Positions 1-51,354 of a stretch of 64,000 nt of DNA are shown here, piece by piece. A program made the translations under genes and the position numbers. The notes under the pieces are model-generated. The model was not told where the DNA came from and did not search any database. It worked only from the letters and a program-made list of their open reading frames with translations. Source of the stretch: Agroathelia rolfsii. Taxonomy: Eukaryota; Basidiomycota; Agaricomycetes; Amylocorticiales; Amylocorticiaceae. The stretch's first letter is position 1; every line of letters starts with the position of its first letter. The stretch lies in contig JABRWF010000005.1 in NCBI GenBank assembly GCA_018343915.1, forward strand, positions 1,151,001 through 1,215,000, written 5' to 3'.

Positions 1-215
1 CATAGCATAGTTCCAAGCACCAAAACTAGAACAGTTTCTAGCAGCAATGCAACGAGAACCCTTCTTAGCTCGACATACCGCCTGAGGCGTGAGATAGACA
101 GTCTGCCATCGACAGGCAAGTCGTAATCTTCATCCTCATCCTTGTTTCTCAAGTCTGGGATGTCAGAATAGCCATTTAAAACAAATGGTATGTAATCCTG
201 TTCGGACGACGGCAT
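1..215 (-). CDS. partial membrane-anchored protein, candidate DUF3328/UstYa-like oxidase (N-terminus only)
   Basis: An open frame begins with ATG at 215 and runs without a stop off the left edge of the window, giving 71 residues. It starts MPSSEQDYIPF, continues with a short acidic stretch (NKDEDEDYD, about residues 27-35), a basic stretch (RLRRYVELRR, about 44-53) and then one hydrophobic segment (about 53-71, VLVALLLETVLVLVLGT). This is a type II single-span layout. Known of the family: DUF3328/UstYa proteins have a roughly 40-60-residue charged head, one membrane anchor and a lumenal domain with HxxHC motifs. Those motifs would lie outside the window, so the assignment is inference from the N-terminus and from position: it is divergent from a repeat-peptide precursor starting at 1106. 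Other single-pass proteins are possible. Confidence 0.45.
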   Translation of the reverse strand, partial: MPSSEQDYIPFVLNGYSDIPDLRNKDEDEDYDLPVDGRLSISRLRRYVELRRVLVALLLETVLVLVLGTML

Positions 216-1105: not shown

Positions 1106-1287
1106 ATGCACCTCAATATCATTTCCGCTTTTGCGGTGATCCTTAGCCTTACGGGGAGTCTTGCTGCTCCTGCTAATAAGGTTGGTCTAAGACACCTGCT
1201 TCTCTGTTTGTGTCCTCAAACTAACGCCTTTAAAACGCAAGGTAGTGTTGTCTACATACGACAGCATGAATATCTAACAGTCCACAG

Positions 1288-2338
1288 ATTGACCGCAGTA
1301 TATATGACGGGACTAGGGTAGACGCAGAATATCTGCTGTAGTATGTCCATGGCTTTATCGCAATCATTCTATCCAGGCTGATGTCTCTTGCTATGTCATA
1401 GTGACAAAAGGCACGAACTTGTTCAAGGTACAGTCACTGCACAAAAAAAATGTCCGATTAAGGTGGTTTCACGGCTACATCTCCTTCCTCACAACACTTT
1501 CAACCCAAACAAAGTATACCATGTCATAGTAGACCCCTAATAACCCCATGTACATATGCAAAATATTTTCTTACATCAAATAAACAATGTGTGAGCAAGT
1601 ACACAAACACCCCCATTAAGACCTATCTCTATGATTATCTACTCTGGGAGAAAATGAGTTACATCCTCAAAAACTATATGAAGTGCAGATTATTTTCCGA
1701 TTTTTTCTTGTATGAAAAGAATATGTAGTTGTTGAGATATAAACCAGGTGAACTAGGGCAAAACTGTCTAACTCCGTGCTAAAAGCACAATATACTTCCG
1801 TAAAGTTAACAAAATCTCTAACCACCTTACTTTTGATAGCTCAATTCCTCGACAGTCACATAGTCTTTTCATACAAGAAAAAACTGGAAAATAATCTGCA
1901 TTTCATCTAGTTTTTGAGGATGTAACTCATTTTCTCCCAGAGTAGATAATCATAGAGATAGGTCTTAATGGGGGTGTTTGTGTACTTGCTCACACATTGT
2001 TTATTTGATGTAAGAAAATATTTTGCATATGTACATGGGGTTATTAGGGGTCTACTATGACATGGTATACTTTGTTTGGGTTGAAAGTGTTTTGAGGAAG
2101 GAGATGTAGCTATGAAACCACCTCAATCGGACATTTTTTTTGTGCAGTGACTATAGCATATACAATGGTTCCAGGGTGGATGCAGAGTATCTATTATAGT
2201 ATATCCAGAGTTTGGAGTAACTACTTTGCTAACCTAGATACATGACTTAACAAATTTATCTTGGTTTAGCGATAAAAGGGATAGTGTTGAACATAGTATA
2301 TATGATGAGACCAGAGTAGATGTTGAATATCTTCTGTA
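1288..2338 (+). repeat. three tandem exon repeats with intron at the same codon
   Basis: Three units at 1288-1340, 1402-1430 plus 2156-2198, and 2270-2338 share a 42-nt segment that aligns without gaps (1299-1340, 2157-2198, 2297-2338). The donors that follow are GTATGTCC, GTATATCC and GTACGTTCC. The three introns are 61, 71 and 68 nt. Similarity extends past the donor, so the exon plus its intron was duplicated as one block. Confidence 0.75.
1431..2153. mobile_element. foldback MITE with long terminal inverted repeats, Tc1/mariner-like
   Basis: A 723-bp non-coding element. The left arm (1431-1726) and right arm (about 1858-2153) are near-perfect inverted copies of about 296 bp, separated by about 131 bp of unrelated sequence. 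Ends read CAGTCACTGCACA... and, in reverse complement, TAGTCACTGCACA.... It is flanked by TA at 1429-1430 and 2154-2155, as expected for TA-targeting Tc1/mariner-type elements. No transposase is encoded, so it is non-autonomous. It lies inside an exon of the repeat-peptide precursor; removing it with one TA leaves that frame open. Confidence 0.88.
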
Positions 2339-2431
2339 GTACGTTCCGAGGATTATTGCTTGATAGTATTTGGTTTGACTAACAGGTTTTTTTCTTGTCA
2401 CCCTAGCGATAGAAGGAGCGAGACCGTATAA

Positions 2432-3085
2432 TAAGAAAGTCCTTTGCATGCTTGCTGGCTTTTCAAATAGGCAAGGGTACCACTTGGAAAACTATAAGGG
2501 GTTATAGGTTCACATACATACTTTGCTCTAGATACTAGCCAAGTTCTGCATATACAACTACTACAATGACAGCATCTGTATATCAGCAGGAGCCACTGAG
2601 TTGACTATGACATCGCCGTTACGCCATGGGGCCTCGAAAGTAGAAAACTTTGAAAGTTTTAGTTGCATAGTTGCAGGAGTTAAAACTTGATTGAGGCTTG
2701 ATCACGAGAATGAAGACAGCCAGCAGGCCTAATTGGAGGACCGCAATTTATGGATTACGTCACGCATCCGAATTAGGTCCAAGTTGTCAGTTGGAGGACC
2801 AATTTTAGACTATTCTTATAAAGCTGAGAGAAAATTACCAAGTCTGTCGTATGTCTTGCCAAAAAAGGATATCCCTCAGATTCGGCTTTTGGTCGGGTTT
2901 ATCAGGTTCGACTCGGAGTCTCTGACAAAGAATCGTGACAACACTCTTCGACATCGTTGCAATTTGGTCCGCTCGTTTGGCAATTGCAGGCCTGTCAGTC
3001 CAAGTTGTTGCTCGCGTTTGGTCTAAAATGTTCTAAAAGCCTAGAATATTGCTGCAGATCGCGTTATTTATGCTCTGCCATAGCC
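2432..3085. other. intergenic region, no gene seen
   Basis: About 650 bp between the precursor's stop and the first F-box gene. It must hold the terminator of the former and the promoter of the latter. An open frame at 2733-3026 has no recognisable features. Confidence 0.4.
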
Positions 3086-5047
3086 ATGTCAGGCATAACA
3101 CTTCTCCCTATTGAAGTTTGGCAGAATATCACAGCTCTTCTCGATGCAAAGGACATTGGGCATTTATTATGCTGCTCTCGCACCTTGCATGCTATATTTG
3201 TGGGAGAGATGACTCGCAAGCCACTCATTTGGGAGACTCCTCGCACCACAGCCTTCAATCTTCGTTTCTGGGAGACGAACAGAGACCTGACCCAGAATGT
3301 GAAGAGCTTGTCTATATCTATTACGGCGCAAATACCAGCAGATGTAGATGTGCGCCGTTATAGTACTGCGTGCTCATTGATCAATGTGCACGGAAATAGG
3401 GAGGGTATTGGATTTGCAAATAGCAGCCAACATGCCCAGGTCGCTTATTCCCCTTACATAGCGACAGCACCTCTTTACGCAAAAACACTGGGGACTATGC
3501 GGTGGTTCACCAGTTTACAAAGCCTGACATTCAAGGGGATGCGACTCCCCCCCGGCATATCATCTCTCATTCACGCCTTTCCACAGCTTTATGATCTAAG
3601 CATTTCCTCGTGTGCCATGTCAAATTGCACGGCCGGTATTCTCTATGATCCCCCAGACTCGCTCCGAAAGTTAAACCTAACAGATATATATTATCCACCG
3701 GCGGCTACACAGAGGTCGTCATATCGGCGTCCGCTCACGGAGCAGGAGTTTCATCTCATTGCACCCTTGATAACACTGGTCCAAGCTCCAAACCTTCAGA
3801 CCCTCTCGCTTGACCCAGAAACAGCAACAGTATTGACATTATCCTCCTTAACACCTCTCTCGGATACATTGCAAGATCTACAGGTAACGAAGCGTGTTGA
3901 AAATCCACAAAGTAACTGGCCGTTGGGACCAGGCTCCTGGTCATCTTCAATAATCCTACAACTGCTCATGATCTGCCCGTCGATTGAGTCCTTGCGAGTT
4001 CCCTCGGCTTCTTCCGACTCCACGACTGCCGACGTACTGGAGACACTTTGGGATAGTGGTATGGATAACCAAGCCCTCAAACGTTTGTACTCATACACGG
4101 GCCCACTAAAGCTGGCGCTTCTCTTGGTCCGTAAAGGGCGAATCCCGAAGGAACTGCAGGCAACCGAGCCTTCTCGTTCGACCACTTACTTATTGTCAAT
4201 CTCTTGCCGTGGAGGCTATATGAGTTTGATGGGCCATAGTTGGCGAGATGCGTCGTGCCTCGATTTATATTACCTCTTAACGGCTACCCTGTCGAAATAT
4301 CCCGGCGAGATAAAACGCTTTGGAATTTATGGCTCTTGGTCTTGGTCAGGGATCCCTGACTCGCTGCCATCTGTTCTGACCGAGCTTGTTACCTTGGAGG
4401 GGACTTTAGAAGCTGCTGGGAAGATTTTAGAACGATGGCGATTTTTTCGGGAAATATTGGTATCGTGTTTCACGATGCTAGACCAGGTCTGTAATTGGCT
4501 CAGTCGTGATCGTGAAATACTCGCCTGCGTGGAAAGCCTGCGCGTGACGCGAATATCATCTTGGGATTCCCGATTACTAGTTGAGGTCTTGAATATGCCA
4601 TGTCAACTTCACACACTCGAAATCGCCTACGAAGAAGGATTTGCATCCCAGGTATGTACTAGTACTGTTACCCCCAAATAAACTATCTGCTCATCTTAGA
4701 GACAATATTTCCCGTCACAGGACGAACTGTTCACATTTGGACAATCCCTCTTGGAGAGATACCCTTACCTGGCAGATTTGCGTATATACAACAAAAATGA
4801 TAGCTCTATATCATGGCTGGCCCTTCCAGTTGAACCAGTCGTTCTTGACTTCTATGGAGTACCGCTTGCTATAGACTGGTCAGAAATGGATCCTCCGCTG
4901 ACTGCCGAAGAAGAGCTGGAGCAGTTATTGAATGTATGGCATAGGAAATCTGCGAGGCTCAAGGTCGTGCAGATTGCTGCAAAAAGTGTCTGGAGGCTGA
5001 ACGACGATGGCAACGGTACTGGATATTGGATTGAAGAAAGAGACTGA
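3086..5047 (+). CDS. F-box/leucine-rich-repeat-like protein, paralogue 1
   Basis: Two exons, 3086-4651 and 4721-5047, give 630 residues. The start was chosen at MSGITLLPIEVW because this is exactly the F-box beginning. The F-box-like motif (about residues 5-45) reads LLPIEVWQNITALLDAKDIG, then HLLCCSRTL. The rest is irregular, Leu-rich and LRR-like (LQSLTFKGMRLPP, LRKLNLTDIYYPP, LQTLSLDPETA). Basidiomycete F-box proteins of this kind are presumed substrate receptors of SCF ubiquitin ligases; the substrate cannot be inferred. The intron (4652-4720) sits at the same place as in the neighbour at 5662-7337, with which it shares most of its length, so the two are tandem duplicates. Confidence 0.85.
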
Positions 5048-5661
5048 CAGCGCTCCGATTTAAAGCTTTGAGGACAGAAATTAGCAGATATGTACTAGTA
5101 TATGTATATACTGTGATGGATAGTGTATTATATGGTTTATGATCCAATATCTTCAAAAAGATAACTTGTATTTGTCCTGATAAGCCAGTGATATGGTGAC
5201 CATACTGGCCAGAAAGCGGAGTGGTACAGAGTTTCAAATTTCCAGCTCCGATGATTCCTGTGCTTGCTGCACTTCTATACTTACGCCAATTATAGCGGGA
5301 AGATATCGATTACATTATCTAAGACCCTTCTATAGTGCTCATCTCTGGAATTCTAATAGTGTCCAGGCTGCCTCAACTCGACTCTTGGCAATTAAATTAC
5401 TGGAGCTACACATGCTCGTTGGACTTATGAATCCTTGTTATTGACTTATCTGGTTGCTCACGTGAATAAAACAAAAAATAGATCTTCATATGAATCGTCA
5501 GTGTGCACAGCAGCCAGCCTTGCTTCTTACCGCGTTTTTTTTCTGATCCGTCCATCCAACCCTGGGGCTCAATCTGTTGCCTACCGTCGAGAGTGTAAAA
5601 TCATTCTGCAGCCTGGCATATCAGTATAGGCTGCTTCTCTCGTACACAGAGACCAACGAAC
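5048..5661. other. intergenic region between tandem F-box genes
   Basis: About 610 bp with no supported gene. It should contain the 3' UTR of the upstream paralogue and the promoter of the downstream one. Open frames at 5193-5444 and 5435-5629 show no family features. Confidence 0.4.
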
Positions 5662-7337
5662 ATGGTGGATCTTAGGTTACTGCCTATTGACGTTTGGCAT
5701 CATATAGCATTTTACCTTGATGCACGGGATATGGGCCATCTATCATGCTGTTCTCGTACCATGAATATTTTGCTTTCTAGAGTAGTAGTACAAAAGCCAC
5801 TTGTTTGGAAGTCGCCTCGCACCATGGCCTTTAACCTCCATTTCTGGGACAAGCATCCGGAGTTGGTTCGCAGAGTGAAGATCTTGTCCGTATCCGTCAC
5901 TGAACAGGTCTCGCCAGATAGGATACAATACCATAGTGACCCGACGGCGACATCGCGGCTCGTAAACATACATGGACTTGAGCAAGGCACTGGATGTGCC
6001 AATCATGAACAACACGCTCTGGTCACAGCTCCTTCCAGTGTGGCAACCACATCTCTTTTTTCAAAAATGATTAAAATTATGCGATCATTCGTTATGCTGC
6101 GTAGTTTGACGTTGCGCGATATGCGGTTGCCCGCTAACATTTCACTGCTCATCTATACCTTCCCGCATCTTCGTAATCTGGAATTCACCTCCTGCGCCAT
6201 GTCAAATTATCCAGCTGGCCCTCTATATAAAGCCCCAAGGTCGCTCGAGAGACTTAGTCTAATGGATACACGTTATCCGCCGACAGTCACGGACGACGCG
6301 TCGGAGGCTCAAGAGTTGCTCACGAAACGGCAACTTGATTTTGTTGCACCGTTAATATTATTGGCGAAAGCCCCAAACCTTCGAAAACTGTCGCTCGACT
6401 CAGCGATGGCGACGCTCCTGACTATTTTCACCACACTACCTCTCTCAGGTACGTTGCAGGAACTGCAGATCAAAGATCCGAATGACGAGGGTGGTTCCCG
6501 GCCAAGGTCCTGGCCGTTGCAATTTAAGAACTGGTCGCCACCAACGTTACTGCAACTGCTCATGATCTATCCGACAACAAGACATTTTGCCATGTACAGT
6601 TCTTGGACTCTGTCAGAGGAAATGCTCAACTCACATGTGGCTGCTTTGCCTAACCTTGCCACTTTGGAAGGAAGCCCAGAAGGTGTCGGTGATATTTTAA
6701 GGTGCTGGCGGCCCTGGCTTTTTCGGGAAATAATGGTCTCCGGTCCGACTGGAGAACACCAAATGCGCGACTGTATTGGCCAAATTTGTGTGTATCGCCC
6801 AGTAGGCTTGGATAGTCTACGCCTGGTACAGGTGCCATCGTGGGATCAGGAGCTGTTGGTGGAGATATTGAAAGTGCCATCATCTCAACTTCAGAAGCTG
6901 GAAATCGCCTATGATGAAGGATTCCCGTCCGAGGTACGTGTCTTTTTTTTGTGGTGATGCTGCTATTACTGCTACTACTTCGGGCCTATCATCTGCTTAT
7001 TGCCTCCTTGCAGGCCGACCTATGCACGTTGGGACAATCTCTTCTGGAAAAGTTCCCTTGCCTCACCGACCTGCGTATCTACAACAGCAAAGATAGTTCT
7101 ATCCCGTGGCTCATTCCTCCAGCCAAACCTGCTGCTCAGGACGAGAAGGATGGGCATAATAAAGAGAGAATAGATCCTCCGTCGCCGGCGATTAGCAAGG
7201 AAAAGATCGAGCACTTGTTGGGTATGTGGCATAACAAATCGCTAGTGCTGAATACTGTGCAAGTTGCTGCTAATTGTATTTGGAGGCTTATGAATAACGG
7301 TGGTGATAATGGACACTGGATTCAAGAACATATTTAG
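5662..7337 (+). CDS. F-box/leucine-rich-repeat-like protein, paralogue 2
   Basis: Two exons, 5662-6933 and 7014-7337, give 531 residues. The N-terminal F-box (LLPIDVWHHIAFYLDARDMG) and the following segments match the upstream gene closely (KSPRTMAFNLHFWDKHPELV against ETPRTTAFNLRFWETNRDLT). Compared with paralogue 1 it lacks about 90 residues in the middle: the LLMIYP segment runs almost directly into the MYSSW segment, while paralogue 1 has the long DVLETLWDSG...YLLTATLSKYP insert. The frame stays intact, so this is a deletion (or an insertion in paralogue 1) rather than decay. Presumed SCF substrate receptor; substrate unknown. Confidence 0.85.
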
Positions 7338-12295: not shown

Positions 12296-13628
12296 CTAGT
12301 AAAAGTCGGGGATGACGATATCATCTGGCACGTGCGTAAAGTAGTCAAACTCTGTCTGGAGCTGGTGGTCCTTGGCCCAGTCGACGATGGCGTCAAAGTT
12401 GCGGCACGAGTGCACGCCGTCCTGGGAGATGAAGGTCCGGTTGCGTTTGTCGGACCATTGCCAGATGACGAGGCTGGTGATGAGAGAGAGCGAGAGATTG
12501 AGAGATTGAGTTGGGGGTTTATTTCAAGAAGAGACAGAAGGGAGGGACTTACGATACGTCTGTCGATCGAGAGTGCGAGGGAGAGAGAAAGAAAGAAAGT
12601 GTGTTAGTTATGGATAGTAATAATGATAGAAAACAAGGGCAGCGTTTTTCTTCTTCTTCTCACCTGAAGCACAAATGAGCGCCTGTCGAACAGCCTCGAT
12701 ACAATGCGAGACGTGGTCGTCCCAGTCCTCGGCGGGTATGCCCGCAATATCGCCCGTCTCTGGGTCGGTGTAGTTGGCCGCGTAGAGACCTTTACGCATG
12801 TAATTCTGCAGATGTTTATATACATATTCAAAATCAATATAAATTCTTGCAAGTGCTCGGTATATAGATAAGAGATAAGGGATAGATATAGGGATGCACG
12901 TACCAAGCAATGCAGCTGGTGGAATACGCCCAGACCGACAATATAGTTCTGCTCGTCTCCCGGGATGGCAGAGGTCTTGTTCGGCAGCAGACGGGCTTGC
13001 CACTTGGGGATCTGGGAGATGCCAAATTCTGTGTGATGAGAATGATTTAGGTCCTTTCGATTAGTACATGGGGCGTGTTTATATAAGGAAAAAAAAAACT
13101 CCATACCGTTGTAGAGATCATCCCATGCCTGATCTGTTTCCGGCGAAGGAGTTTTCTGGTAGATGTTGCGGTTTTTCTCTCCAAAGCCCATCCAGAATTT
13201 CATTGCCTTGAATTTGATAGCATCTTGAGCAGGTGCTGTTTTTATTTATTTGCAAGATAAGACAAGGAAGGAAGAGGGAAGTCGAGATAAGCGCCCAAAG
13301 TGAAGAATGATAAGAACAAGAAAAAAAAATGAGACGCACAGTAGATCTTTTGTGGATAAAAGTTGAACATGGTACGGTTATACGACCGCTCCGAGAGCCA
13401 GAGGCCGGTAAAGAGCAGAATCAAAATCAGTTGGGTGACGACGACGACGTTGCGTGTGCATATGTAGGGTAGCCAGCTGAATCTGCCCTCCTTCCTCGTC
13501 TGGCTGCGCGCATGTCCTAGTGTGGGCGTCGACGAACGCTTTTCGTCAAAGTCGTCTGTGGAGGTATCTCTGGCCTCTGGCGACTCCGGGTCGGCGAGGA
13601 GAGCTTCGTATTCTACGTCGCGGGGCAT
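12296..13628 (-). CDS. DUF3328/UstYa-family oxidase-like membrane protein
   Basis: Six exons on the minus strand: 13628-13340, 13235-13107, 13028-12904, 12805-12664, 12559-12553 and 12473-12296, giving 289 residues. An acidic head (MPRDVEYEALLADPESPEAR) is followed by one membrane segment (about 62-80, VVVVTQLILILLFTGLWL), then the DUF3328 domain: YSPAQDAIKF, HQLHCL and HCIEAVRQALICAS, then DVS...WQW. HQLHC and HC are the paired motifs thought to bind metal. Known members oxidise or cyclise peptides (ustiloxin UstYa/Yb) or other substrates. The fifth exon is only 7 nt; without it the conserved A-D-V-x...W-x-W region and the frame are lost. No precursor gene is adjacent; the repeat-peptide locus is 10 kb away. 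Confidence 0.9.
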
Positions 13629-15166
13629 GGTGTTGGCAGTGGAGTGGGCGTCTGTACTTCCTCGGGGTCAAGGTCTATGAAGCTAACTGGATAAGATAAA
13701 TATATATCTATATCTGTATGGGTGTGTTCCTGAGTGTTGTTATAGACAGGTCGGGACGAAGAAGAAGAGGAATACAAATGGTCAGTTGAGCACGAGCTTT
13801 ATATACATGCGATATTAGGACGTGATGACGGCGGTCAAGACGGCTGGATGATGGATGATTGTTTGATGGCCCTTTGTCGGGTTACACTAGCATCAAGACG
13901 ACAAGACCGAAATGATGAGGTGATAAGGGCTGTATGCCATTGTTGGTATCTGACATGCTGAGGAGCTTGATGTTGTACTGAGGGAGTGCCCAGGTGGTTA
14001 ACTGGGCTCTACCTTATGGTCCTGCACTTATTAGCAACGATTTCTAGTGGAAAGGAATACTAAACCCACCAGGAAATGACATCTCGACTGAGATGGGCAT
14101 CAACGGCCTCGGACGTAATGTTCCCTCATTTTGTTCTCAGGTCCGAAGCAGGCCACGGAGAAAAAATCCAGCTGACCACGCTGACTGATGCGTTTAGAAA
14201 ATTGGCCCGAATGTTAAACCATAGGATATTGTTCTCAACGTAAGCTTTGGCTCTTGTGTGATAACTGGTAATGTTTCTGCTCGGTGTTGTTGATCATGAA
14301 ATGGATGGGCTTCAGAAGCAGGTACTACTCTGCGCAACCGGCTGTCTGAACATAACCGGCATCATCGCGCATCACCTATACACATATCCCAAACCACTGC
14401 AAGGTATCACATCGTAGGCCTGAAAACATCCATTTAGTTGAACTAGCTCAAGCACTGCACCAGCAGTGCTGTTGTCGGTTTTATGTATTTATACCAACTG
14501 TTGCCATCGTATGAACTCTGTCGCAGCATAGCTTGAGTTTCAGAAGCTGTTTCATACTCTTATAAAGTACAGCTTACTGCTATAGTAGGAGTATAAAATT
14601 GTAATGTATCCTTGATTGTTCCAGCCCAAGCGGTTTCTTTGGCCTCAGTTTTTTATAAGATTATTATCGGAAGGAGATTATCCCTATTCAGACGATGTAG
14701 GTAGTAGGCAGCCTTGGATTAGACTTCCAATAACAAATTAAATGCTCATTTCAAAGTCTCGTCAGCTTCAAGACATGTTGGCAATGAGCTCCAGGGACGT
14801 TGCCTCTGACGACAGTTTCACTCAATCCTCGCCGTGACGCTTGATTTTATCGAGGAGGAGCGCTGCATCATCAGACCAAACCATGTTATTTCGATTTTCT
14901 TTGAGAGCCCGTAGATATACTAGTAATTCTCGCATTGATCCGAATGGTTTTCCATGCTATTTTCTATGATGAATATTCTGTGTCGTTAGGAATAATGATT
15001 AGATGACAAGCGTTGGTGGACGAGCAGGCCACTAGCGCAGTAGCCGGCTTGTGCGTCTGCACGTCACCTTGAACCTGATCACCACTTGGCTCACTTTTTC
15101 TCCTGGCACTTTGCTCCGACGTTGCCGTTCTCAGTAAAACCATACATGTTGCACTGTTAGACAACC
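13629..15166. other. divergent intergenic region
   Basis: 1.5 kb between the start codons of the DUF3328 gene (minus) and the LRR gene (plus). It should hold both promoters. I see no supported gene. Confidence 0.45.
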
Positions 15167-35333: not shown

Positions 35334-38183
35334 ATGTCGTCTACCCCCAATAGCGAAAAACTGCTTCCAGAACCACCGCTGACCGGGTCCCGGGGACATT
35401 ATCTAACAGACAGTTCTCAAAGCTTAGAATCTTACGACTCGGACTCATTTGAGCTTTTCAATAACTGTCATAGGACAAGCGACAAGCCCTTTTCTGTGCG
35501 AACGACAAGAGAAGAATCCGAGACTTTAACTATCAAGGCGCTCAAAAGACTTGCAATTATTTTACACATTATCCTTGCTCTGTTGCATTTTGTTTTGTTA
35601 ATCATTCTCGTCGGGAGATTGGAGTCTCGGATTATATTGGAAGTAACGGGGGATACAACTTTTTATGCGACTGTCATAAACACCGCAGGCCAAGTTTTCA
35701 TAATTGTACGAAAATCCAAATTACTTGACCCATCATCATACTGATGCTAATCACTTGCTGATGTATTAGGCATATTCGGCTCTGCTTCTACTTATCACTC
35801 AGAACCTGTCATTACGGCGGGCTTTAACAACAAGGCAAACCCTCACAGCTACTCATGACAGCGCTGATGCTTGGACTGGCCTTGGTGCAGCGCTCATAAC
35901 ATTGACGAGACAGTTCTCAGCGCCGGCGTCTGTAAGGGTAACTACTTTAATTACAGCCTACTTGGCGGGGCTGTCGATGCTACATATTACAACTCCCTCA
36001 TTGTTTGGTGTGCAGCTTGTCAATGCGACGAGTACTATTGCGTCTGGTTTTATCAGCTATTCTGACATTGACACTATAGGTATGTTGGCAGCGTGCTAAT
36101 TGCTGGGGATATTACATTTTAAAAATATGCATCCATGACTATATTAGGATGGAGAAAGTTATCAACCGCACTGAATTCCAGCTTCGATTTGTCTATAGAA
36201 TCTCTAGCTGTTGCTGCCAACGGTATATCTGAACTTGGCGTTACTACGGCTGACAATGGCAATTCAATCCCAACGTTGGGTTTACAAGGCGGAATGATCT
36301 ATGATGTAATTACGGGGCCTAGCTTCATGCCTGGGAGCTTCACAGTAGGAGCATTATCATTTAATGTATCATGTGGATATCTAGAGAATACAACCGCCTC
36401 GTTAAAGACTCTAAATAATCAGAGCACATCAGGATCAGGGCAAACTGATGACCGACAATACATTAATTTGAACTGGAAGCATGGAAATACTTCTTGCGAC
36501 TTTCCCATACCTATGCCTGGTAATGTACAATGGTAACTGGTGCTCAATTTCACTGGAGACTCATTGAAGTGATTTTCATAAAGGCACGAATATCTCGGTC
36601 CGGGTATATCATCAAAATCCAGCTCTGCAGGAAACCTGCGGTGGTTATGCGCCAAAAGCCGTGAGTAAAACATGAGGATCTCATATTAGTGGTTTCACTG
36701 TACCATCGGATCTGTTATACAGAGCATTTTATTCACCTCTGCAGTTTTTGAGCAAAATTACATAAATGGTGATACAGTGTCCCCGGATTCAACCCTGGAT
36801 CTCCCAAAAAATGATTATGGATCGATAGTACCTATCCCGGAGATCCAGAATGGTACAGTATCTATCATTGATTATCCTTTGAAATAATGTTGGTAAACTC
36901 ATGGTTTGACTAAGTATTCCTCAGTAATTCATCTGCGATATTATCAGTACCCAGCGGGTTTCAGATCATGGGATGCACCCTTGATTATCAAAAACATGAT
37001 GCAACAGTGGATTCTCAGAGTGGTGTCCTCATTTCATACGACGACAGCCTAACATCTGTGTCTAATTCTGATCATTCCGAGTGGGCACTGTGGGATCCTG
37101 ACTTCGAGAATATTAATCTACCGCAATGGACTAACGGAAACATTTCTCTGCCCGAGGCGGTGAGCTGCTTGCCTATTTCTCTTACATTACTCACGGGAGC
37201 ACTGATCCATATGTCAGTGGCCATTAATTTTCTCATCTACTAACACCGGAAACCTCGATTGGACGAATAGATCAGACATATACTGTACAAGATACAGTGC
37301 AAATTCGCCCAACTACTGTGGGCTTTCAGCCCAAGATATTCCTCCTCAAGAAGAGTACATATTGACGGTTTTAACTGCGCCAATGTTGATTAACTAAAAA
37401 CGTTCTAAAGGTACATCATAAATAATTTTTTAAACGCTGGGGATACCACAGTTGTGCAATCTTCCGATGTATTAGTTTGGATGTACGGCAAAGATAGCAT
37501 TGAACAAGCTCTTGCGTCTATGACTGCAGTTTATTATTGGAATGGTGGGGTACCTAGACAATCACGGTTCTTTGAGTTATGCCACTGATAAATCATTAGC
37601 AATAAAAATTGCTTTATCAGATTCTGACTTTCATCGCGACATGACGTCAAAAAATACCGCTGAAGGAGTAGCATTCTACATCGCTCGATCTTATCTGCGA
37701 GTATGTATCTAATTCCTTACCAAGGCAGATTCAGGATAAATGATGCATTTCTTTTAGCTCAATCTCATTCCAGTAGGTCTTGTATAATTTTTTCTTAAGT
37801 TTGCCATACTATAACACTGCCCATACTCATACTGAAACAACTAGGTTATTATTGGTCTTTGTAGCTCCATTGGGTTGACATTCTTAACCTTTATCTTTAC
37901 AAAGGACCTCTCTACTGCACCGACCGGATCTGGTATATGGAGCCTGAGTGTGCTGCAAACGATCTGGCTGCTTAAGCAACACCCAGACCTTCTCCAAGCC
38001 GTCGGAGAGGTCGAGGAGCCGACAACCAAGAACTTGCGCATAAGCGGGATGATTCCCGCTCTCCTCACCGCCCCTATGGACGAAGACACTGCAAAAGAGG
38101 CGAATTTTGACTCGGAAAGTGGCCCAAAGTTAGTCAGGTTCAGGAGACGTGGTCGTTCTTTGGATTGGGAATATAACATCTAG
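35334..38183 (+). CDS. multi-exon orphan membrane protein
   Basis: Exons supported by frame: 35334-35705, 35770-36079, 36148-36519, 36584-36660, 36723-36852 and 36948-37159. Later exons near 37452-37544, 37600-37700 and 37858-38183 are placed less exactly. Residues: a cytosolic Ser/Glu-rich head (SSQSLESYDSDSFELF), a first membrane segment (LAIILHIILALLHFVLLIIL), two further segments (AYSALLLLITQNLSL, VTTLITAYLAGLSMLH), a large Asn-glycosylation-rich outer domain (NTSCDFPIP, NGNISLPEA, YGKDSIEQALASM), and a last segment near LLVFVAPLGLTFLTFIF followed by a cytosolic tail. This layout is common among uncharacterised Agaricomycete proteins. I assign no function. Confidence 0.7.
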
Positions 38184-41847: not shown

Positions 41848-43781
41848 ATGCCTGCACACAGTTCTCATGATACGCAGCGACCGCGCAAACCAAGACGAGA
41901 CCTCTTGATTGCACTCTCCTGGGCCTTGCTTGCAGGAACAGGGATTGCTAGTGCCAATGCAGGGGATCCGATACGGATAGCATTGAAGGCGCGTTCGGGC
42001 TCTTATATTGACCCCTCATCAGCACGCACATCACATTTGGCTCGCCGCGTGTATACTAGTAGAGGTCTCTCCGCTGCCAATATCTCGCTGGCAAACTATT
42101 ACAATGGAACGGACTTGCAGTAAGCCTCACGATCATTTACATGGTTTGTTCAATGAACCAAGTCTCATTCCAAAAACATTGTCCGATTTCCATTACAGAT
42201 GGTATGGAAACATCTCGATAGGCACGCCACCTCAGGAACTTACGGTCTGCCGTCATAGCCTTTGCCAGCCCCTAGTTCAAGCTTGCAGCCTCTGACCGGC
42301 ATTTTCTCAGGTCGTCTTCGACACCGGAAGTGAAACACTGGAAGTAGCCAGTGCGTATAGCTCCTTCAATAGCTGACCCTGACGATGGACCCTACATGAC
42401 ATCTATCTCTAGGCACACAGTGCAGCAGCTGCTCACACCAAACCCAGTTCGATTCCTCCAAAAGTTCAACGTTTGTAAGCTCCGGCGACAAGAACACGCT
42501 GAACTTTGAGACAGGCGTGGGCGTCACGCCTGTGTCTAACTCGGACCCATTCTCCCTCACGCTCGAGCAGGCGATGGACACGGTCTCACTCGGGGGTATG
42601 TCCGCGTCGAACATCACGCTTTACCTGATCACCGCCCAATCTGCACCGTTCGAGGTGGATCCGTTCAGTGGTATCCAGGGTAAGTGCAATTCATTTTTTA
42701 TTCCATCCTATCAGAGATCAGGGAGATAAATTATAATTATTCATGACGAGGTTATTTTTGGTTTATCATTAGGTATGAGCTCGCGATCGCAAGGGATATT
42801 TGATGCTCTCACGCAGCAGGGTCTTCCCTGTGAGCTCCGTTTTGTTACCGTTTCAGCTTTGAGATGAAAGGCTCACAGATTGCCACCGCATTTTTTTCCC
42901 GACCGATCTCTAGCTCTTTTCGGATTGTATCTCACTCCGCAGTCTGTAGGCGACGCAGAGCTCACGTTGGGTGGTATTGATACGTCCAAATTTAACGGTT
43001 CGGCATTTTTTTTTCATTTTTAAATTTCTTTACTGAAGTTTTTATTTTTTTACACAGGCTCCCTCACATATGCCAGTCTACCGTCTGATACACAAGGTGC
43101 ATGGATGCTCAACTCTCAAGGGATCTATGTCGGTGATCAAACGAGCTCTACACTGAGCAAAGGCTTGAATAATGTCATCTTTGATAGTGGGACTAGTAAT
43201 GTAGTCTTGGACACGAGTACAGCCGAAGTAAGTCCGGAAAAACGCCAACTATCTATACAAGAATAGTTCTGATCTTGATTTCTACACGAATACTTTCCGC
43301 CAAATAGGCCATCTACTCACTCATCTCGCCCAATATCAAGGCCTATTCAGCTAAGCCAGGCACATACGGCCTCTCCTGTAGCGACGTTGCCAACCTATCC
43401 TCTACCATTTCCTTCACTTTCACCTCTACCTCCGGCTCTACGTTCAATCTCACCATCCCCCATGAAGAGCTCAGCGTCGGCCCATTTGCAGATAACCCGG
43501 GCATGTGCCAGATGTTTATTAATGCCCTCGATGGAGTGTCCCTCTTGGGCGCGTCGCTGTTGAAGCATTATTATACCGTTTGGGACGTGGGTAATCAGCA
43601 GATGGGATTCGCGCCGAATGGTGTGGTTAGCACGGATTTGCATAACGGGAATGGTAGTAGTAGCACGATGACGACGGGTTCGGTGTCGTCTGATGCCGCA
43701 GCCTCTACAGCTAGCAGCGGTCTGTCCGTCGTGTCCTTGTTGGTGGTGATGGCCATTTCCTTCTTCGGCTTGGGCATGTGA
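41848..43781 (+). CDS. pepsin-like aspartic protease (A1 family), probably GPI-anchored
   Basis: Eight exons: 41848-42119, 42199-42244, 42311-42350, 42413-42679, 42773-42829, 42914-42997, 43058-43227 and 43308-43781, giving 469 residues. After a signal-like hydrophobic stretch (about 17-35, LLIALSWALLAGTGIASANA) and a propeptide, the two catalytic motifs are intact: WYGNISIGTPPQ ... VVFDTGSETLEV and NNVIFDSGTSNVVLDTS. FGLYLTP and DAELTLGGIDTSKFNGSLTY are family hallmarks. A Ser/Thr-rich tail ends in a hydrophobic segment (SGLSVVSLLVVMAISFFGLG) with no charged residues after it, as for a GPI signal. It should act at the cell surface as an acid endopeptidase. Confidence 0.93.
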
Positions 43782-45598: not shown

Positions 45599-47803
45599 AT
45601 GCGTGTTCTTGCCACTGGAATTACTTCCCTCGCCGCCGCCGCAGTATGTCTGGCTGCCGGTGCTGCTCCTTTTGCCCGTGCAGTAGCCGTCCAAGCAGAG
45701 AAGCGCGGCTTGTGCACAGTCGAACCTCTGTAAGTTCGAATATTCAGACTGTGCTATTTCATTGAGCTAAACTATGCTCCTGCAGCGGAAACGGGCAAGA
45801 TGACGGTGTTTGTACTCGCAGTATTTTTGCGCACATTTCATGTTGCGATAACTATGATATTTTATAGCCGAATATTCTTAAAGCGTTCTCTGAATGCAGC
45901 AAGAACTCCGTTATCGATTTGTCAGGGAACTACACCGTTGGGACTGCGCTCAACACTACCACCTTGCATAATGTTAACATTTCACTCTCGGGACAAATCA
46001 CGTATACTCCCAACATCACATACTGGTCCCCAGCGAGCTTCTATCTTACCTACCAGGTAAGGCCTCCAGTTTTTTTTCTTTCTTCTTATATAGCTCATTG
46101 CTAATAACCCTCGACAGAATGCAACAACTGCATGGTTACTTGGCGGTCAGAACGTCGTGTTAAGTGTGAGTGGAAACCGTTGTCCTATCTGTTATTTATA
46201 TTGAAACATTATTTTCAGGGCGGTGGTGTCATTGATGGCAACGGCCTCGTCTGGTGGGAAGCATACGCGACCAACCCTAACGCGGGTGTCGCAGGCGGTT
46301 CCTCACGCACATTCGCACGTCCTATTCCTCTCACAGTGTATCAAGGCACCGTAGGTTTTCATGTAAACTGTTGGCATACTCTCTTGAGCTTACATCGACC
46401 TCGATTTTTCAGAACATCATTGTCCGTGACATTACCATTCAAAACTCTCCATTCTGGCACAACTTCGTCTACGATTCCACAAATGTCCTTTATGATGGCA
46501 TTACGGTCCAGTCTGTTAGCCCTAATTCATCCGCACCGGCAGTGAACTCGGATGGATGGGACATTTGTAAGTGTTCAGCTACTGCAAATGAGTGATTCTT
46601 TACCTGACAAATAATTGACTTGAACCGGACCTGGTATATATATATATGTAGACCGTTCCTCATATGTGACAATTCAGAACTCGCATATTGACAACGACGA
46701 TGATTGCGTATCGTTCAAGCCCAACTCGACCCATATTGGAGTCGACAACTTGTATTGTAATGGTAGCCATGGTATCTCAATTGGATGTATGTCTTTTTGC
46801 ATACATGTTTTCGTACTTTCTTCTTCCGAGGAGAAGTTGCTAATTCTTTACGATACTTTTCTCCTTTTGACAGCTCTTGGTCAGGTAAGCACCTTGCCTT
46901 TTTCTCATGTACGAGGAATATTCGATCTGATTCTTTGGTTTCTTTATTAGTACGCCGGAGAGACGGACATTGTCGAGAATATCCGGGTGACGAACATCCA
47001 GATGTATAACGCCCAAAATGGTGCACGTATCAAAGTTTTTGTAAGTTCTCTATTCTTTCCCAGTTGCCCCATTTCCTGTCGTCTCTGCTTCTCCCTACCC
47101 GTATTGTCTTCTTGTTCTCCCTTTGCCATACAACCCCTAAGGCGTACGCATCTCTGGATCAATTTTACTGATCCGGATATTCCTCCTTTTCCCCTTCCCC
47201 CAAAAACGACAGGGCGGCGCGAACAGCTCCACGAGTGTCTCCGGCGGCGGGTCAGGCTACGTCCGCAATGTCACCTTCGAGAACTTCTACGTCAGCAACA
47301 CGGCGAACCCGATCATCCTTACGCAGTGCTATGATACCTCGGCGGAGCAGTGTGCGGAGTTCCCGGCGCAGCTGACGATTGATGATAGTGAGTTGAAGAA
47401 TCTCCTTTTTTGCGTGTCCTGTGTTCGGCACGTTACATATATGCACATCGTCACCCCTTTCTCCGCTTATGGACCTTGTTTTGTTAATTCTTTTCTCTTC
47501 ATTAATCATCAGTCCACTACATCAACGTGACTGGTACGGCGAGTAGCAGCACCAAGGGTGTTGTCGTTAGCCTCGAGTGTTCCAACACCTGCAATGACAT
47601 CACCGCAAAGGAAATCAACATTACCGCACCGGGATACACGTCTATCTACCAGTGCGCGAACTTGGCAGATGAATCACTGGTACGTTTTTTTTTTCTTTCG
47701 TCCTTTGATTTCGAGTGTAGGATATGTTTGCTGATGAATTATGTATCTTTGTTGTCACGCACGCTTATAGCTTGATTTCAACTGCACGGATGTGACCATC
47801 TAA
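45599..47803 (+). CDS. exo-polygalacturonase (GH28), tandem copy 1
   Basis: Twelve exons (45599-45729, 45786-45807, 45868-46056, 46118-46165, 46219-46350, 46413-46566, 46652-46786, 46874-46884, 46951-47040, 47213-47387, 47513-47679, 47771-47803) give 428 residues. A signal peptide ([20 protein letters not shown]) and a KR processing site precede the right-handed beta-helix. GH28 motifs are intact: [24 protein letters not shown] (catalytic Asp pair), [12 protein letters not shown] (His) and GARIKVF. The SFKPN and IGSLGQ forms are those of exo-acting enzymes, which release galacturonic acid from chain ends. It is secreted and many N-x-S/T sites are present. Exon 8 is 11 nt. Confidence 0.95.
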
Positions 47804-49102: not shown

Positions 49103-51354
49103 ATGCGTATTCATTCCACTGGTGTAACTTCCCTCGCTGCTGCAACAATCTGTCTGGCTGCCGGTGCTGCCCCTTTTGCTCGAGCGGTTACCGTCCAAGC
49201 AGATAAGCGCGGCTCGTGCACAGTCGAAGCTCTGTAAGCTCAGTTGTCCAGATGTATCCTTGTCGTCAAGCTAACTATACTCCTCAAGTGGAAATGGGCA
49301 GGATGATGGTGTTTGTATCTGCTACATTTTGTACATCCCCTGATTACAATAATTAACACTGCTTTCTATAGCCAAACATCCTCAAAGCATTCTCCGAATG
49401 CAGCAAAAACTCGGTTATCGACCTGCCAGGAAACTATACTGTCGGCACTGCACTCAATACCACGGGCCTGCACAATGTTAATATTTCGCTCACTGGACAA
49501 ATAAAATACACACCCAATATCACATACTGGTCTCCGGCAAGCTTCTATCTTACCTACGCGGTGAGACTTGCCGTCATTTACTCTTTCATATATTCAGTGC
49601 TCATTATAATGCTGCATTGCACAGAATGCGACAACTGCCTGGCTACTCGGCGGTGAGAATATTGTATTGAGCGTAAGTAGAGATGACTTTCCTCTATTTT
49701 ACTTTGATTGAAAATTCTTCCTCAGGGAGGTGGTGCTATCGATGGCAACGGCCTCGTCTGGTGGGAAGCATATGCAACCAACCCGGATGCGGGTGTCGCA
49801 GGCGGCTCTTCATTGACATTTGCACGGCCCATTCCTCTTACGGTGTACCAAAGCACTGTACGCACATTCATAGATTGTTGGCCTCTTTTTTGAACTTATG
49901 TTAGTTTTGGCTCATTAGAACGTAGTCGTGCGTAACATTACCGTCCAGAACTCACCATTCTGGCACAACTTTATCTACGAGTCAACAAATGTTCTCTACG
50001 ACAGCATCACAGTTCACTCTGTTAGTTCTAATGGATCCGCTCCAGCGGCGAACACGGACGGGTGGGATACCTGTAAGTAATCCAACCAGCCTCTATGATG
50101 GTCGATTTCTTAAAAGCGAATAATCGATCCGAACTGGGCTTGCTTATATATCTAAGATCGTTCCTCATATGTGACATTCCAAAACTCACATGTGTATAAC
50201 CATGATGACTGTGTCGCGCTCAAGCCCAACTCGACCTATGTTCATGTCGACAATATATATTGTAGTGGCAGCCATGGCATCTCAATTGGATGTATGTCTT
50301 TTTGCGCCGGCGCGCCTTCTCAGCGCCTTCTCTTTCCCTTGAGAAGTTGCTAATTCTTTATGCCTTTTTCTCTACTATAGCTCTCGGTCAGGTATGGATT
50401 CCACCCCTTGTGCATAAGGAAAGATTGGATGTAATACCCTGACTTCTCCATCAGTATGCCGGAGAGATGGACATTGTTGCCAACGTGCAGGTGACGAACA
50501 TCCAGTTATACAGCTCCCATTACGGCGCACGCATCAAAGTTTTTGTAGGCTGCTCTCATTTTCTTTCTTTTTTTTATTTATTTTTATTTTATTTTATTTT
50601 TATTCTCCGATTTCTTTCCTTTTTTTCTTCTTCCGTTGCATGCGTATACCGTATGCGCATATGAACACGTTCTTCCTTCTATCCATCCCTCCGAACCGTC
50701 GTCTTGTTCTCCCTTTGTCATTTGACCTCTGGGACGTCCACATTTCCAGATCATTTTCTGATCCTCCCTCCTGCTATTCCCCCAAATGATAGGGTGGCTC
50801 AAACGATTCCACGAGTATTTCCGGTGGCGGTACGGGCTACGTCCGCAATGTCACTTTCGAAAACTTTTACATAGATGGCGCGGTTAGCCCTATCGTCCTC
50901 ACGCAGTGCTACGATACCTCAACGAAGCAGTGCGAAGAGTTCCCGGCGCAGTTGACGATTGATGATAGTGAGTTTCAAAAGTTTCTTTTTTTGTTTTTGT
51001 ATGCATTGTATCTGGGATGTGCATATATGCGCAATAGTTTCCTTTTTCTGTTCATTAAAGTACTTTTGCTGATGCTTTTCTGTCATTCAGTACACTACGT
51101 CAATATAACCGGCACGGCGAGCAGTAGTAGTGAGGGTGTCATTGTCAGTCTCGAGTGCTCCAACACCTGCGACGACATCACTGCAAAGGACATCAACATT
51201 ACCGTATCCGGATACACGCCCATTTACCAGTGCGCGAACTTGGCGGATGAATCTCTGGTATGTAAAGTTCATTTTGGGGTGAAGAGTACTTCATAACAAA
51301 ATTTTTTTGCACACATTATAGCTTGACTTCAACTGCACGAATGTGATCATCTAA
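49103..51354 (+). CDS. exo-polygalacturonase (GH28), tandem copy 2
   Basis: Twelve exons (49103-49233, 49289-49310, 49372-49560, 49625-49672, 49726-49857, 49919-50072, 50157-50291, 50381-50391, 50455-50544, 50793-50967, 51091-51257, 51322-51354) give 428 residues. Every exon has exactly the length of its counterpart in copy 1, while introns differ. Motifs are retained: [49 protein letters not shown]. Signal peptide MRIHSTGVTSLAAATICLAA and a KR site. Main differences lie in surface loops, so it is a working duplicate rather than a decaying one. Secreted, pectin-degrading. Confidence 0.95.

What the first reader, a model, noticed from the sequence alone, without database searches (positions are those of the whole stretch)
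1106..2431. Undescribed secreted repeat-peptide precursor with Kex2-type sites
Sequence shows a signal peptide followed by three diverged copies of a 15-residue core (SIYDGTRVDAEYLLY type), each ending in D-K-R or D-R-R. Differences between copies are largely at third codon positions. Established knowledge: Kex2-processed repeat precursors with a signal peptide produce fungal cyclic peptides (ustiloxin, phomopsin, asperipin) or signals. The conserved Tyr residues in each core are the kind of residue those pathways crosslink. I do not recognise this core family.
Basis: partly seen in the sequence, partly recalled or inferred. Interest (0 to 1): 0.92.

Follow-up and report, generated by a model that had tools for sequence, protein, structure and literature searches.

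The report
Decaying fungal cyclic-peptide precursor gene
A mushroom-type fungus carries, on two related chromosomes, a small gene that looks built to make secreted tyrosine-rich peptides cut at Kex2 sites and cross-linked by a neighbouring UstYa-type enzyme, but both copies are damaged, one of them by a mobile element sitting in the middle of the gene.

Summary
The repeat gene is real. Window 1106-2431 holds a leader exon, three exons each carrying one core (SIYDGTRVDAEYLLY type), and an end exon. Between window repeats, changes are mostly synonymous (pN/pS 0.09). (1) A 723-bp inverted-repeat element (1431-2153) splits the second core exon. (2) A UstYa gene (PF11807) lies head-to-head with it, starting at window 215, minus strand; most of it lies outside the window. 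(3) Contig C4 holds a collinear, about 87%-identical copy of the region with an uninterrupted second core exon. The genome looks agaricomycete, not ascomycete. Best reading: a dikaritin-like Kex2/UstYa RiPP locus, once under selection, now decaying. The adjacent UstYa is broken by different lesions in both copies; the C4 precursor lacks the window copy's start codon; homeolog cores 2 and 3 show no constraint (pN/pS 1.3, 1.6), core 1 does (0.06). Such precursor/UstYa neighbours are already reported from Basidiomycota (103 of 1680 repeat precursors, PMC7329392), so this is a new member of a known kind, with one core per exon. No transcript or product has been shown.

The parts
1106..1180 (+). 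exon 1: leader/signal peptide, MHLNIISAFAVILSLTGSLAAPANK
   Evidence: hydrophobic stretch followed by SLA-AP, no signal-peptide predictor available; junction inferred
1181..1287 (+). intron 1 (107 nt, weak GTTGGT donor, CACAG acceptor)
   Evidence: the frame of exon 2 requires an intron here; donor and acceptor also present in the C4 copy
1288..1340 (+). exon 2: IDR + core 1 SIYDGTRVDAEYLL(Y)
   Evidence: homeolog pair pN/pS 0.06
1402..1430 (+). exon 3, left part: DKRHELVQG
   Evidence: uninterrupted exon 3 in C4:3333342-3333271
1431..2153 (.). 723-nt inverted-repeat transposable element (MITE-like, CAGT... end) inside exon 3, flanked by TA target duplications at 1429-1430 and 2154-2155
   Evidence: 27 matches to one 193-nt arm genome-wide, 2 of them the arms of this copy; no element at the C4 site
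2156..2198 (+). exon 3, right part: core 2 (S)IYNGSRVDAEYLL(Y)
2270..2338 (+). exon 4: DKRDSVEH + core 3 SIYDETRVDVEYLL(Y)
2407..2431 (+). exon 5: DRRSETV and stop
1..215 (-). N-terminal part of a UstYa-family (PF11807) gene, divergent from the precursor; continues outside the window to at least C5:1150345; its third exon is broken
12607..13667 (-). second UstYa-family gene, two HXXHC motifs, four compared exon pieces open in both copies of the region; possible partner in trans
   Evidence: homeolog pN/pS 0.05

Best explanation
It is a decaying member of the Kex2/UstYa (dikaritin-like) class of fungal RiPP loci in an agaricomycete-like fungus. In the ancestral design (inferred) the precursor entered the ER through its leader, a membrane-anchored UstYa-type oxidase made from the head-to-head gene cross-linked conserved Tyr or neighbouring side chains in each core, Kex2 cut after D-K-R/D-R-R, a Kex1-type carboxypeptidase trimmed the basic residues, and short Tyr-rich peptides were secreted. 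Each core sits in its own exon, and the introns after the cores are all phase 2. Shown here: gene anatomy, the UstYa neighbour, a codon pattern of past purifying selection on the cores, a homeologous copy, and lesions in both copies. Not shown: transcription, cleavage, cross-linking or any activity.
For: Repeats real and conserved at protein level. UstYa domain on two separate exon pieces of the divergent gene: 29.2 and 40.2 bits against a cut-off of 25; two HXXHC motifs visible in its C5 copy. Kexin-type P-domain matches exist in the genome, 2. Homologous precursor, also head-to-head with a UstYa gene, in collinear position on C4. Decay: element inside exon 3; UstYa exon 3 in C5 has an in-frame stop and a frame change, the C4 copy has lost one HXXHC motif and has frame breaks or stops in three exons; the C4 precursor lacks the ATG used in the window, has a small gap in exon 1 and a non-standard GC donor; homeolog cores 2 and 3 have pN/pS 1.3 and 1.6, against 0.05 for the second UstYa gene as control.
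Against: Core 1 is still constrained between the homeologs (5 synonymous, 1 non-synonymous difference, ratio 0.06; pooled over the three cores 0.48), as if some selection persisted. The C4 precursor has another in-frame upstream ATG before a hydrophobic stretch. Counts are small (14 codons per core). No tyrosinase or other tailoring gene was seen, though the genome-wide tyrosinase search had no positive control. One protein search found no relatives, so the family is not confirmed in another species. Single breaks could be assembly errors.
Confidence: 0.7

Rival explanations
1. The locus is still active in reduced form. Exons 3 and 4 both start and end in phase 2, so skipping the element-bearing exon keeps the frame and leaves a two-core precursor; the second UstYa gene 11 kb away could act on it in trans.
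For: Exon phases; second UstYa open in the compared pieces with two HXXHC motifs in both homeologs and under constraint; core 1 constrained.
Against: Adjacent UstYa is broken in both copies; homeolog cores 2 and 3 unconstrained; no transcript data.
Confidence: 0.13
2. It was a linear Kex2-processed repeat protein (signal or pheromone-like) and UstYa is only a neighbour.
For: Most basidiomycete repeat precursors have no DUF3328 neighbour (103 of 1680 do; PMC7329392, passages); no tailoring genes among 20 frames scanned nearby.
Against: UstYa is head-to-head with the precursor in both homeologs, 890 bp apart in the window, a second UstYa is near, and every core keeps three Tyr.
Confidence: 0.12
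3. Chance open frames or an assembly artefact, not a gene.
For: No relative found in one protein search; single-base breaks could be assembly errors.
Against: Exons, splice sites (but for one GC donor in C4) and phases agree in two diverged copies; 0 of 150 shuffles reach the observed score; the element belongs to a repeat family of this genome and has a target duplication.
Confidence: 0.03

Closest known systems
Dikaritins (ustiloxin, phomopsin, asperipin-2a loci)
   Same: secreted precursor with repeated Tyr-containing cores between Kex2 sites; UstYa/DUF3328 gene in the locus
   Different: known examples are ascomycete (PMC9233826, PMC12048977, passages); here the genome looks agaricomycete, one core per exon, no tyrosinase, methyltransferase or peptidase among 20 frames scanned nearby, genes broken
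KEX2-processed repeat proteins with a DUF3328 neighbour in Basidiomycota (e.g. Sistotremastrum type S-5 in PMC7329392, passages)
   Same: repeat precursor, Tyr-containing type, DUF3328 genes in the vicinity (8 of 12 members of S-5)
   Different: the repeat sequence of S-5 could not be compared (figure not held, no supplement look-ups allowed), so identity of type is untested
KEPs of Agaricomycetes (PMC9769878, passages)
   Same: class of fungus and precursor logic
   Different: a term search of its main text found no UstY, DUF or tyrosine; [quoted passage not shown]
Epichloecyclins (gigA)
   Same: imperfect repeats, Kex2 processing thought likely, Tyr-Ile cross-link (PMC9233826, passages)
   Different: ascomycete, nonapeptide cores

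Membership tests
Kex2-processed repeat protein (KEP) | ER signal peptide | tested here: inconclusive
   hydrophobic leader in the window copy and, from another ATG, in C4; no predictor run
Kex2-processed repeat protein (KEP) | repeated cores separated by dibasic sites | tested here: met
   three cores followed by DKR, DKR, DRR; the first has only I-D-R in front
Dikaritin | DUF3328/UstYa gene near the precursor | tested here: met
   two PF11807 exon pieces over the cut-off in the divergent neighbour; as it stands that gene is broken
Dikaritin | two HXXHC motifs in the UstYa protein (criterion quoted in PMC12048977) | tested here: met
   HQLHC and HMGHC in the C5 neighbour, in separate pieces; HQLHC and HVSHC in the second UstYa; only HMRHC left in the C4 neighbour
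Dikaritin | tyrosinase, methyltransferase, peptidase or transporter in the cluster (five-gene definition quoted in PMC12048977, later relaxed) | tested here: inconclusive
   none among 20 selected open frames within about 20 kb either side; no tyrosinase match genome-wide, but that search had no positive control
Dikaritin | side-chain cross-linked product | not testable with these tools
   needs mass spectrometry
Dikaritin | sequence relatedness of the core to ustiloxin, phomopsin or asperipin cores | not tested
   no reference precursor was fetched; that the known cores are shorter and different is recalled

The most novel reading that the evidence does not exclude
A cassette-exon peptide array: each core is its own exon, exons 3 and 4 are frame-neutral, and the last Tyr codon of each core is completed only by splicing, so a basidiomycete could vary the number and mix of cross-linked cores by alternative splicing and could survive a transposon landing in one core. 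The paper searches run listed no description of this for Kex2/UstYa precursors.
Probability: 0.1. Interest if true: 0.7.

Novelty: new member of a known kind. Interest (0 to 1): 0.38.

Why it matters
Cross-linked Kex2/UstYa peptides are characterised in ascomycetes (passages). PMC7329392 finds a DUF3328 neighbour for only 103 of 1680 basidiomycete repeat precursors and suggests that the cyclisation factor differs there or that cyclisation 'might hardly occur'. A precursor head-to-head with UstYa, conserved until recently in an agaricomycete-like genome, adds a concrete case that such chemistry may have existed there, and shows a locus dying in two diverged copies. The one-core-per-exon layout could also make such genes easy to miss by gene finders, so counts in intron-rich fungi may be too low (inference).

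Tried and rejected
Chance repeat: rejected by shuffles and by the second copy. Ascomycete origin: my first guess from genome size and contig number (Aspergillus-like, note) was dropped. Large linked RiPP cluster: no tailoring genes among 20 open frames scanned. Related precursors elsewhere in this genome: a protein query found only the two loci, 4 matches. A repeat scan of loci L008-L044 gave the window gene at up to 66-68 and the C4 gene at 49-51; two other places scored as high as the C4 gene: L038 at 55 (Pro-rich, not followed up) and L032 at 54, beside another UstYa match. L032 was looked at: a degenerate repeat with stops and no leader-plus-core layout, so not counted as a precursor. Most loci scanned are only about 3 kb, so precursors further from other UstYa genes would be missed. 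L045-L047, fetched later, were only put through the motif scan; that scan of the window and 47 loci hit only exon 4 of the two known copies (9 rows, overlapping loci). Splicing the element out as an intron: a plausible donor and acceptor exist at its edges, but the product is out of the core frame (read by eye). Relatives in the protein database: none at E <= 10 among 53 candidates for the C4 copy; the database does hold agaricomycete UstYa proteins, but small intron-rich genes may be unannotated. The paper search for gigA intron structure listed unrelated papers; the listings showed no exon-per-repeat description.

Full report
Observation. By exon: leader exon 1106-1180, core exons 1288-1340, 1402-1430 plus 2156-2198, and 2270-2338, end exon 2407-2431. 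The introns are 107, 61, 71 and 68 nt. Introns 2 to 4 start with GTATGT, GTATAT and GTACGT, end in TAG and are in phase 2, so the last Tyr of every core is written TA|T or TA|C across a splice. Across five aligned exon pieces (window exons 2 and 4, C4 exons 2 to 4; the element-split exon left out) the invariant residues are I, Y, D, R, D, Y, L, L; the split core 2 has N at the first of the two D positions. Between the three window cores, synonymous change dominates: pS 0.94, pN 0.087, ratio 0.09. The best-matching pair of 14-residue stretches scores 63, against at most 42 in 150 shuffles; of 38 other window stretches the highest is 58 (a Cys/Arg-rich stretch in the one starting at 37801), then 43. 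The 63 is the antisense reading of the same repeats, so it shows the repeat, not the strand.

Exon 3 is split by a 723-nt element at 1431-2153 with long, nearly identical inverted arms and TA target duplications at 1429-1430 and 2154-2155. One 193-nt arm has 27 matches in the genome (a lower bound), 2 of them the arms of this copy, the second arm at 98%. The C4 copy of exon 3 has no element. Read as it stands, exon 3 meets stops inside the element.

Neighbours. A divergent gene starts at window 215 on the minus strand and runs off the window. Two of its exon pieces match UstYa (PF11807) at 29.2 and 40.2 bits, cut-off 25 (whole-genome hits 69.7 and 30.1 bits). It shows HQLHC and HMGHC, the two HXXHC motifs quoted as a marker of RiPP-related DUF3328 proteins (PMC12048977, passages; motifs). 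Its third exon has an in-frame stop and a frame change. In C4 the same gene lacks the first motif and has frame breaks or stops in three exons. The two sets of breaks differ, so the common ancestor may have been intact (inference). A second UstYa gene at about 12.6-13.7 kb is open in the four exon pieces compared in both copies, has two motifs, and is under strong constraint (pN/pS 0.05 between homeologs). Other frames with Pfam matches: two F-box genes in tandem, FHA and RING domains, a leucine-rich repeat; to the left an RNase PH-type domain, an HMG box and a fungal transcription-factor domain. Among these 20 selected frames there is no tyrosinase, methyltransferase or peptidase.

Second copy. 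About 30 kb around the gene is collinear with contig C4, inverted: C5:1139721-1152425 and 1153579-1171000 align at 87.3% each, the outer limits being those of the stretches compared; the part from the right half of exon 3 to about window 2580 is lower, 77% over 453 columns. A stretch at window 56.8-58.0 kb also matches C4 at 87%. The C4 precursor has core exons (I)IYDGTRVDAEYLLY, SIYDDFRVDIEYLLY and SIYDRTREDTKYLLY. Its exon 1 lacks the ATG of the window copy and has a small gap, but an upstream ATG is in frame with the leader remnant. Its intron 3 begins with GC. Homeolog comparison: core 1 five synonymous to one non-synonymous difference (ratio 0.06), core 2 one to five (1.3), core 3 one to six (1.6), pooled 0.48. 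Repeats within C4 give 0.24, against 0.09 in the window. Against the consensus SIYDGTRVDAEYLL the window cores carry 0, 2 and 2 departures and the C4 cores 1, 3 and 4. I read this as old purifying selection followed by relaxation, mostly in C4, with the window copy hit later by the element. With 14 codons per core these ratios are rough.

Organism. The UstYa search returned 9 proteins, 6 with an organism name: Cristinia, Somion, Panus and three Mycena. The cystathionine gamma-lyase frame at 51.6-52.5 kb has best hits at 56-65% identity; the named ones among the 120 rows listed (of 8000 scored) are, as far as I recognise the names, all Agaricomycetes (class recalled). No close relative appears, so the species is unknown and the placement is an inference.

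Mechanism and rivals. The design matches Kex2/UstYa RiPPs: leader, cores, dibasic sites and a head-to-head oxidase-family gene. Kexin-type P-domain matches are present, 2. Cleavage and cross-linking are inferred. Because the adjacent UstYa is broken in both copies and the precursor is damaged in both, I think the pathway no longer works in this strain (0.7). A reduced activity by exon skipping with the second UstYa in trans cannot be excluded (0.13). A linear-peptide origin remains possible (0.12).

What is known. PMC7329392 (passages) found 7878 repeat precursors in 1345 of 1461 strains; 1758 had a DUF3328 neighbour; in Basidiomycota 103 of 1680 did, and 8 of 12 of a Tyr-containing Sistotremastrum type. 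PMC8893723 (passages) reports 16 UstYa-like genes in Pleurotus, 6 developmentally expressed, 'probably involved in dikaritin production'. PMC9233826 (passages) places dikaritins and epichloecyclins under ascomycete RiPPs and notes, for amatoxin and phallotoxin clusters, that high intron density in these basidiomycetes makes identification hard without transcripts. A term search of PMC9769878 found no UstY, and one of PMC6339444 no intron or exon. So the kind is known. The core sequence was not matched by the one protein search run, and the one-core-per-exon layout did not appear in the listings or in the passages seen. That is not proof that it is unreported, since most subscription papers, figures and supplements were out of reach.

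Verdict. Observation confirmed, interpretation partly supported: a new, decaying member of a known class, moderately interesting for being in an agaricomycete-like genome, for its exon-per-core layout and for its visible decay in two homeologous copies.

Noticed in passing
genome contigs C1-C8: Contigs seem to come in homeologous pairs: C4/C5 at 87% where compared, two RNA polymerase beta-type matches of near-equal score on C1 and C2, two kexin P-domain matches of near-equal score on C6 and C7. Suggests a hybrid, a genome duplication or two very divergent nuclei; only C4/C5 was aligned.
   Followed up: partly
window 1431-2153 and elsewhere in the genome: The 27 arm matches fall on C2 8, C3 2, C5 4 (2 here), C6 10, C7 1 (78% identity), C8 2, C1 0, C4 0 (lower bounds). 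The element looks largely confined to one half of the paired contigs, as if it multiplied in one parent or nucleus.
   Followed up: partly
genome-wide: 36 UstYa (PF11807) exon matches, with groups at C4:381-392 kb, C5:3942-3951 kb and C5:3873-3877 kb; possible further RiPP loci, no precursor recognised in the small stretches scanned.
   Followed up: partly
L032:60-230 (C2:2090635-2093880): A degenerate repeat of about 87 nt next to another UstYa match, with stops in most frames read; probably non-coding.
   Followed up: yes
window 2939-5044 and 5599-7334: Two tandem F-box genes beside the precursor; the C4 region is collinear there.
   Followed up: no
window 46624-46947, 50793-51293 and 42400-43778: Exon pieces of glycoside hydrolase family 28 (polygalacturonase-type) genes at two places and of an aspartyl protease.
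   Followed up: no
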